A stretch of DNA of 64,000 nt from Rhynchosporium graminicola. Its lineage: Eukaryota; Ascomycota; Leotiomycetes; Helotiales; Ploettnerulaceae. The DNA is taken from assembly GCA_900074885.1 (NCBI GenBank), contig FJUW01000012.1, positions 1,924,990 to 1,988,989 on the forward strand, in the 5' to 3' direction. The position numbers were made by a program, and so were the translations under genes. The notes beneath the pieces were generated by a model that was not told the DNA's origin, searched no databases, and was given only the letters and a program-made list of their open reading frames with translations. Within the stretch, counting starts at the first letter, position 1, and each line of letters opens with the position of its first letter. Below, piece after piece: positions 14,601-15,800 of this stretch.

Positions 14601-15800
14601 TTATACTCTATAATAACGCCGTATCTAAAACTCTACTTCTTTAACTACCTCTACTTTACTAGCTTTCTCCCCTAAGTCCTCCGGAGCTTCTAGTAAATCT
14701 GGAATATCTAGAACCGGAACTACTATATCTAACTCCTTACCTAAATCTACTAATATAGCCCTAGTAGTAGACTAAGTATAATAGCTAATCCTACGGGCTT
14801 TCTTCTTTAGAAAGGATCTAGGAGTATCTAGATTTAATACTATCTCTAAACTAGAAGGCAAATTCCTCTTTCCCTTAGTATTAGATATCGTAGCTTTAAA
14901 TATAGCTTTCTTCGCAAATTCCCGTATAATACTATTTAACTCCTTTATCTACTTTAATATTATTTTAGCTATTAACTTAGACTTCGCTGAATCGACTGTT
15001 AGAAGATCTAAATCCTATATCACGTTAGTATTATACTAGTATCTAAGGGTTTAAGATCGTAACTTACTATTTTAATAAACTCTAACTTCTTAAATACTTT
15101 CTCTATAGAACGCCTTAAAGCTTAAGTCTCCGCTAATTATATAGTAGTAATCTCTAATATAATAGTAAGAGTAGCAGATTTCGCAAGATAATAGATCTGA
15201 TTAATAGCCTTATAAGTAGCTATAATACTACCCCGATTCAGCTCCGCGTCCTTAGCTTCGCTACTAGGAAGTAAACCGGATAAAATAGTATATTTCGTAT
15301 TAATATAATTAAGTAATTATAACGCGTTAATATATATAATTATATTTATATTTAAGTAACTTATATACTTATAACTACTCTTTAACGCCGAATAATACTT
15401 ATAAATCTTAGAGTTAGGCTTATTAAATAAGTATAAGAGTTCTAAAATAGGAGTATTATTATACTTTATCTTAAGGAAAGCGCGAATATATCGTAAGTAA
15501 TATATATAATACGCCGCCGAAAGAGTACCGGCAGGAACTAGTAAAAGCACTATAGGAGTTAGCGTTACAGATCTATAAAACCCCTATATTATACTTAAGG
15601 ATTATCCCTAAAACTAAGATAAGAAACTTACTTATATTAAGAGAAAAGTTAATTAGGTCAATTAATATATAAGATTATAGTAGACTACTATAGTAGTTAG
15701 TAACGATACCTACTATAGGAGCCGTATCGTAGTCTAAAGAGAGTAAACTTATAAGTTAAAGTAGTTATCGTAGTTGAAAAGGAAAAGCTCTAATATTAAT
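14601..15800 (-). pseudogene. E1 antisense accessory gene, two exons, function unknown
   Basis: On the strand opposite to gag-pol, a frame runs from about 15,790 to 15,068. It includes a stretch from 15,550 to 15,317 with no stop, starting near a VPAGTLSAAY motif. A 53-bp intron (15015-15067: GTAAGT donor, TACTAAC branch site, TATAG acceptor) then moves the frame to a second exon (15,014-14,601) that is Lys/Glu-rich with DLDLL at its start and KKKARRISYY near its middle. A TATA-like TATATAAAGG (minus) lies at about 15,809-15,820. The few in-frame stops are TAG/TAA of RIP type. The same layout is present in E2, E3 and E4. The start codon is not resolved and no family is recognised. It could be a captured host gene or a retroelement regulator. 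Confidence 0.6.

What the first reader, a model, noticed from the sequence alone, without database searches (positions are those of the whole stretch)
14601..15800. Conserved antisense, intron-containing gene inside a chromodomain Gypsy element
All four copies (E1 14601-15800, E2 21590-22793, E3 35828-37035, E4 51012-52215) carry, opposite to gag-pol and between chromodomain and 3' LTR, a two-exon gene. It has a TATA-like box, an intron with GTAAGT donor, TACTAAC branch and TATAG acceptor, and frames that agree only if that 53-bp intron is removed. Retroelements lose sense-strand introns when they transpose, but an antisense gene keeps its intron because the genomic RNA is never spliced on that strand. 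A conserved antisense gene could be a regulator of the element or a captured host gene. I know of antisense ORFs in some plant LTR elements but no named fungal protein of this kind.
Basis: partly seen in the sequence, partly recalled or inferred. Interest (0 to 1): 0.88.

Follow-up and report, generated by a model that had tools for sequence, protein, structure and literature searches.

The report
Spliced backward gene in fungal retrotransposon
A repeat-riddled fungal genome carries many decayed copies of a jumping element that holds an extra gene on the opposite strand with its introns still in place; similar backward genes are already known from a related fungus, so this is a well-supported new example rather than a new kind of thing.

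Summary
All four elements carry, tail-to-tail with pol and before the 3' LTR, an antisense gene interrupted by a short intron (53 bp in E1-E3, 54 bp in E4; all three canonical signals survive only in E1). I aligned 83 copies from the host genome (Rhynchosporium graminicola, identified through an annotated protein). They show a coding frame kept by selection before RIP ruined them: no shared frameshifting indel in 869 coding bases against 8 sites in 299 leader/intron bases, and fewer transversions. Where the intron is 54 bp it holds fixed stops, so it is an intron there too. A second, better-preserved 82-bp intron lies upstream. None of the 83 lacks either intron. Alignable pol ends about 75 bp away, so sense coding is no explanation. 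The novelty claim fails: Boty elements of Botrytis (same order) are published as carrying 'the additional antisense gene brtn' (Zhao 2011), and such genes are a reviewed class (aORF-3R). I could not obtain BRTN's sequence, so homology is untested; sequence relatives were found only in Rhynchosporium. Most likely an element-encoded accessory protein, possibly nuclear (KKK motif in 79 of 83 copies). Function is inferred, not shown.

The parts
8574..16348 (+). E1, chromodomain Gypsy element with ~264-bp LTRs (8574-8837 and about 16085-16348)
11369..14551 (+). pol RT-RNaseH-IN-chromodomain region of E1 (stops by RIP), aligned nearly end to end with relative P0015 (50% identity)
15811..15819 (-). 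TATA-like box TATATAAAG of the antisense gene; TATATAA in 71 of 73 covering copies
15632..15795 (-). Exon 1, start approximate, probably non-coding leader: frameshifting indels shared at 5 sites
15550..15631 (-).
15068..15549 (-). Exon 2, coding: no frameshifting indel inside it in 83 copies; one copy (L062) has a 22-bp deletion across its boundary with intron 1
15015..15067 (-).
14628..15014 (-). Exon 3, coding; carries the conserved KKK motif at 14807-14799; four frameshifting indels, each in one copy only
14625..14627 (-). Stop codon, TAG or TAA in 79 of 83 copies
21599..22769 (+). Same gene in E2 (intron 1 21763-21844, intron 2 22327-22379)
35852..37022 (-). Same gene in E3 (intron 1 36858-36777, intron 2 36294-36242)
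51036..52207 (-). Same gene in E4 (intron 1 52043-51962, intron 2 51479-51426, 54 bp)

Best explanation
It is an accessory gene of a Gypsy chromovirus family: a three-exon, two-intron gene on the strand opposite gag-pol, between the end of pol and the 3' LTR. Host RNA polymerase II probably transcribes it from its own TATA promoter just inside the 3' LTR, and the host spliceosome removes an 82-bp intron (probably in or next to the leader) and a 53/54-bp intron. The product is a protein of about 290 residues. Shown by sequence: the anatomy, and past selection on the protein frame in the two coding exons. Inferred: that it was transcribed and spliced, and that the protein enters the nucleus and helps or regulates the element's own replication or expression, as proposed in print for antisense genes of plant elements. 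Because these introns lie antisense to the genomic RNA they cannot be lost during retrotransposition. The 83 copies examined were then damaged by RIP.
For: Frameshifting indels shared by 2 or more copies: 0 sites in 869 coding bp against 8 in 299 leader/intron bp (p=1.7e-5; 7 sites, p=6.8e-5, after dropping one duplicate copy). Shared transversion columns: 62/869 against 40/299 (p=0.0018), with a third-position excess of 29 of 62 (p=0.019). Six-frame test on transversions: the antisense gene frame has most synonymous changes in both exons and the highest BLOSUM score in exon 2 (1.85, next 0.82); in exon 3 it ties with one sense frame (1.10 v 1.11) on shared columns but leads when single-copy columns are added (0.95 v 0.66). 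Intron 2 in the 37 copies where it is 54 bp: 3 of 18 codons are fixed stops, against 3 of 289 exon codons (these counted over 83 copies) (p=0.003). Intron 1 donor intact in 83 of 83. No intronless copy among 83: minimum lengths 77 and 53. KKK of exon 3 kept in 79 of 83.
Against: No RNA evidence could be reached. A plain codon-phase test of transversions was flat on 41 and 73 copies although the same test on 41 copies picked out the pol frame (64/35/68, p=0.003); on 83 copies it gave p=0.07. In exon 3 one sense frame equals the gene frame in BLOSUM score and another has fewer stop-making changes on shared columns (2.1 v 3.3). Exon 3 has four single-copy frameshifts, and a 22-bp deletion in L062 crosses the intron 1/exon 2 boundary. 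Intron 2's donor +1 base is A in 58 of 83 copies, the highest of all AGT columns (0.70, next 0.46; mean 0.13): RIP goes G to A, but this rate is unexplained. Exon boundaries were drawn after seeing the alignment, which favours the indel contrast. The start codon is not visible; A|TG across intron 1 is only a suggestion (A before donor 1 in 83 of 83; TGC after the acceptor in 39, TAC in 41). The predicted structure is of too low confidence to use (mean pLDDT 44). No Pfam domain at a meaningful score.
Confidence: 0.82

Rival explanations
1. The antisense transcript matters and the protein does not: a non-coding antisense RNA that pairs with genomic RNA and feeds silencing or copy-number control.
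For: A review raises this for antisense genes of LTR elements (PMC7264820, passages); promoter-like and splice signals are conserved.
Against: Absence of shared frameshifts in the coding exons and conservative changes in these frames are not expected of a non-coding RNA. Both roles may co-exist.
Confidence: 0.08
2. A host gene captured in reverse orientation with its introns.
For: Host-like introns are present; an antisense capture would keep them.
Against: Two searches of a 5.8-billion-protein collection found 13 and 14 relatives, all uncharacterized Rhynchosporium proteins; the last 95 residues of one (P0008) equal the translation of a copy of this element family (L027). The rows listed (a part of 172) all contain stops; some exon-length rows have none, but no full-length one. 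An ancient or fast-evolving donor cannot be excluded, as the searches need shared five-residue words.
Confidence: 0.06
3. Intron 2 is not an intron: the ancestral gene read through an in-frame 54-bp stretch and the E1 subfamily lost one base.
For: 37 of 83 copies, including E4 and most of the older ones, have 54 bp in frame; donor +1 is mostly A.
Against: In those 37 copies the stretch has 3 fixed stops in 18 codons, and 0.204 stops per codon against 0.026 in their exons; a real frameshift would have cut off 129 residues in a form now seen in 46 copies with exon 3 kept; branch and acceptor motifs are in place in most copies.
Confidence: 0.08
4. The frame is a by-product of sense-strand coding or of RIP composition.
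For: RIP makes AT-rich frames rich in TAG and GTAAGT-like words; the first stop survey showed fixed stops in all six frames; one sense frame ties in BLOSUM score in exon 3.
Against: Alignable pol ends at 14551, before the gene; no sense frame has more synonymous transversions than the gene frame in either exon; RIP would not produce the contrast in frameshifting indels.
Confidence: 0.03

Closest known systems
Boty-like elements of Botrytis cinerea with antisense gene brtn (Zhao et al. 2011; BcGypsy1 in PMC8365987)
   Same: Fungal Gypsy element with chromodomain and an additional antisense gene between pol and 3' LTR; host in the same order, Helotiales (Rhynchosporium; Botrytis recalled). Seen: Zhao 2011 only as a title in reference lists; passages of PMC8365987 and PMC4227169; review passages and section 5 of PMC7264820.
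   Different: BRTN's sequence and any intron in it could not be seen (paper not held), so homology is untested; a profile of the Rhynchosporium proteins returned no Botrytis, Sclerotinia or Monilinia protein among the 7995 candidates scored. The RT-to-integrase piece is 41% and 43% identical to Monilinia and Sclerotinia borealis proteins (best 120 of 773 listed).
[quoted passage not shown]
   Same: Same position and orientation; the review reports an own promoter for gene23 of Grande and nuclear location of its product (PMC7264820 passages).
   Different: No TRP28 or other Pfam domain here; the word 'intron' does not occur in the main texts of the two papers searched for it (PMC7264820, PMC11963269).
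HTLV antisense gene HBZ
   Same: Antisense gene at the 3' end; the review notes HTLV's antisense promoter in the 3' LTR. That the main HBZ message is spliced and its protein nuclear is recalled, from no call.
   Different: Analogy only; no sequence relation was tested or is claimed.

Membership tests
aORF-3R (antisense additional ORF between pol and 3' LTR) | Additional coding frame between pol and 3' LTR | tested here: met
   Pol aligned to 14551, gene 14625-15549, LTR from about 16085
aORF-3R (antisense additional ORF between pol and 3' LTR) | Antisense to gag-pol | tested here: met
   Pol on +, gene on - in E1
aORF-3R (antisense additional ORF between pol and 3' LTR) | Present and conserved in many copies of the family | tested here: met
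   83 copies aligned; 172 match rows in the genome search, often one row per exon. The share of family members without the gene was not measured
aORF-3R (antisense additional ORF between pol and 3' LTR) | Antisense transcription | not testable with these tools
   no RNA data on hand; only a conserved TATA-like box
Boty/BRTN family | Protein homologous to BRTN | not testable with these tools
   BRTN sequence not on hand; Zhao 2011 not held; profile search found only Rhynchosporium
Boty/BRTN family | Gypsy pol with chromodomain | tested here: met
   Pfam RT and RNase H hits, SH3_Tf2-1 below its cut-off; chromodomain not found by Pfam in E1 but aligned with relative P0015 that bears PF00385
Retand-type antisense protein | TRP28 domain PF04195 | tested here: not met
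   No such hit in 4 annotated Rhynchosporium proteins scanned with E up to 10, filters permitting, nor in three antisense frames of E1 at E up to 1

The most novel reading that the evidence does not exclude
A genus-restricted fungal family of doubly spliced antisense accessory proteins, whose start codon is assembled by removing intron 1, acting in the nucleus as a regulator of the element: a fungal functional counterpart of HTLV HBZ, not homologous to BRTN.
Probability: 0.2. Interest if true: 0.65.

Novelty: new member of a known kind. Interest (0 to 1): 0.42.

Why it matters
Antisense accessory genes of LTR elements have been called conserved but of unknown function (PMC7264820). Here 83 copies let the protein frame be told apart from RIP damage, and two introns kept in each of them give a built-in test: spliced antisense reads can come only from this gene, not from the genomic RNA. 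The 14 annotated 'uncharacterized proteins' of Rhynchosporium found here may be gene models on such elements; one (P0008) is shown to match a copy.

Tried and rejected
Counting stop codons alone was useless: RIP has fixed stops in all six frames. Codon-phase of transversions on 41 and 73 copies was not significant; adding ten more copies, six of them 79-83% identical to E1 and four 86-90%, improved it. The comparison of all distinct indels (4 of 10 frameshifting in coding exons, 15 of 16 outside, p=0.005) had split one 22-bp boundary deletion in two; leaving it out gives 4 of 9 against 14 of 15, p=0.015. A structure prediction from 13 annotated proteins was too poor to search with. Scans of viral contigs with the antisense and pol profiles found no relative; a scan of genome contigs found 4 loci with pol at 31-40% identity; the ORF lists of three (L089-L091) settle nothing, the contigs of L089 and L090 ending soon after pol; L092 was not looked at. 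A neighbouring pol at window 23-1807 is truncated and cannot be used. The family nearest to it (39 matches) was read beyond pol in 3 loci: no antisense-protein match better than E=0.10, but permissive nucleotide matches of 62-67% between the exon 2 area and L095 (E down to 4e-7), lying 1.8-2.5 kb into that stretch; I take them for AT-rich composition and did not test that further; L094 holds a nested element. Paper searches, listings only: one search was too broad to inform (15 of 32,751 papers listed, none with the genus); one search gave 6 papers, none opened; led to the Boty literature and its citations and to plant reviews. I did not read Zhao 2011 (not held).

Full report
WHAT WAS CHECKED. 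The window holds four copies of one Gypsy family with ~264-bp LTRs in AT-rich DNA. E1 has TpA/ApT 1.69 and a (CpA+TpG)/(ApC+GpT) ratio of 0.15, against 0.93 and 1.12 in the genic part of the window: strong RIP. The genome has 55.3 Mb in 121 contigs. It is Rhynchosporium graminicola: the last 95 residues of annotated protein P0008 match the translation of locus L027 exactly, and P0008's contig has the same length, 137,924 bases, as G000 contig C118 on which L027 lies. That species belongs to Helotiales.

ANATOMY. Pol runs on the + strand of E1. RT and RNase H pass Pfam cut-offs, SH3_Tf2-1 does not. A metagenome relative, P0015 with a chromodomain, aligns from 11369 to 14551. The antisense gene ends at 14625, so the two are tail to tail and do not overlap in what can be aligned; pol's own stop cannot be placed because of RIP. 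From the other side: a TATA-like box at 15819-15811, a leader, intron 1 at 15631-15550, exon 2 at 15549-15068, intron 2 at 15067-15015, exon 3 at 15014-14628 and a stop at 14627-14625. Intron 1 was not in the finding. In the four window copies intron 1 has GTAAGT, GCTAAC and AG throughout; intron 2 has GTAAGT in E1 and E2, TATAG in E1, E3 and E4, TACTAAC in all, and 54 bp in E4.

COPIES. One search returned 45 match rows to the antisense region at DNA level (40 over the full 1200 bp, E1 among them); one search returned 172 match rows at protein level, often one per exon and only partly listed. I aligned 83 copies: the four in the window, 39, 30 relatives and 10 more. One pair (L019, L020) is identical; tests without the duplicate are.

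IS IT A GENE? Stop codons alone cannot tell, because RIP has put stops in all frames. Indels and transversions can, as RIP is a C-to-T process. Shared frameshifting indels: none in 869 coding bp, 8 sites in 299 bp of leader and introns (p=1.7e-5); 7 sites, p=6.8e-5, without the duplicate. Counting also single-copy indels, 4 of 9 inside coding exons shift the frame against 14 of 15 outside (p=0.015), one 22-bp deletion across the intron 1/exon 2 boundary in L062 left out. Transversion columns shared by two or more copies: 62/869 coding, 40/299 non-coding (p=0.0018); 29 of 62 at third positions (p=0.019). Over all six frames, the gene frames have the most synonymous transversions in both exons; the BLOSUM score is best in exon 2 and ties with one sense frame in exon 3 on shared columns, leading there when single-copy columns are added. 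Against: phase tests with fewer copies were flat (30/32/33 and 23/24/31 on 73 copies) although the pol frame was picked out on 41 copies (64/35/68); on 83 copies the three-way test gives p=0.07; and the boundaries were set after seeing the alignment.

ARE THE INTRONS REAL? Intron 1 has an intact donor in 83 of 83 copies and lies between A and, in 39 copies, TGC (TAC in 41), so that its removal could form the start codon; that is a suggestion only. Intron 2 is 53 bp in 46 copies and 54 bp in 37. The one odd fact is donor +1 of intron 2: A in 58 of 83, more than any other AGT column. All three canonical signals of intron 2 survive in 18 of 83 copies. None of the 83 lacks either intron.

RELATIVES. 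The 293-residue query found 13 proteins and a profile of these found 14, all uncharacterized Rhynchosporium proteins. Several of their gene models splice at intron 2 (P0003, P0004 and P0007, read by eye), but these are predictions, at least one of them on a mutated copy. No Pfam domain at a meaningful score. KKK in exon 3 is kept in 79 of 83 copies; that it is a nuclear signal is inference. A different Gypsy family in the same genome, nearest to P0109, shows no match to this protein better than E=0.10 beyond pol in three loci, one of them disturbed by nesting; permissive nucleotide matches to L095 were seen and put down to composition.

WHAT IS KNOWN. PMC8365987 (abstract and passages) names brtn as the additional ORF of BcGypsy1 and cites Zhao et al. 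2011, whose title states an additional antisense gene in Boty-like elements. PMC4227169 (passages) describes a Boty-like element with gag-pol, chromodomain and brtn-106. PMC5987419 (one passage) reports a Monilinia transcript similar to Pol and BRTN. PMC7264820 (passages and section 5) reviews the class in plants and names Boty in Botrytis and Sclerotinia; it says functions are unknown and suggests regulatory nuclear roles. PMC11963269 (passages) describes TRP28 antisense ORFs of Retand. The finding is therefore a new, unusually well-sampled member of a known kind. Whether it is a BRTN relative remains open.

VERDICT. The gene and its two introns are, in my judgement, real. Its function is inferred by analogy only. 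Interest is moderate, because the fungal precedent dates from 2011.

Noticed in passing
window 38084-41228 and 44718-47684: Two ~3-kb copies (about 88-90% alike) of a repeat with strong strand skew, 179-bp tandem units (3.6 and 2.6 copies) and no Pfam domain in the first copy; the second interrupts E4. Less depleted of CpA/TpG (0.38) than E1 (0.15).
   Followed up: partly
window 23-1807: Truncated minus-strand pol of another Gypsy family, 50% identical to a Clarireedia jacksonii protein (P0109), with 39 matches scored in the genome, all with stops.
   Followed up: partly
window 53925-54842 and 58206-59332: Protein-kinase-like ORFs (resemblance to SRPK kinases recalled, not searched) in the more GC-rich part beside the repeat block.
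   Followed up: no
window 16083-16204 (-): Some annotated Rhynchosporium proteins (for example P0002, P0003) begin with a peptide that seems to come from the antisense strand of the 3' LTR; read by eye, not tested.
   Followed up: no
window 15067 (-): Donor +1 of intron 2 is A in 58 of 83 copies, far above the mean of 0.13 for AGT columns; cause unknown.
   Followed up: partly
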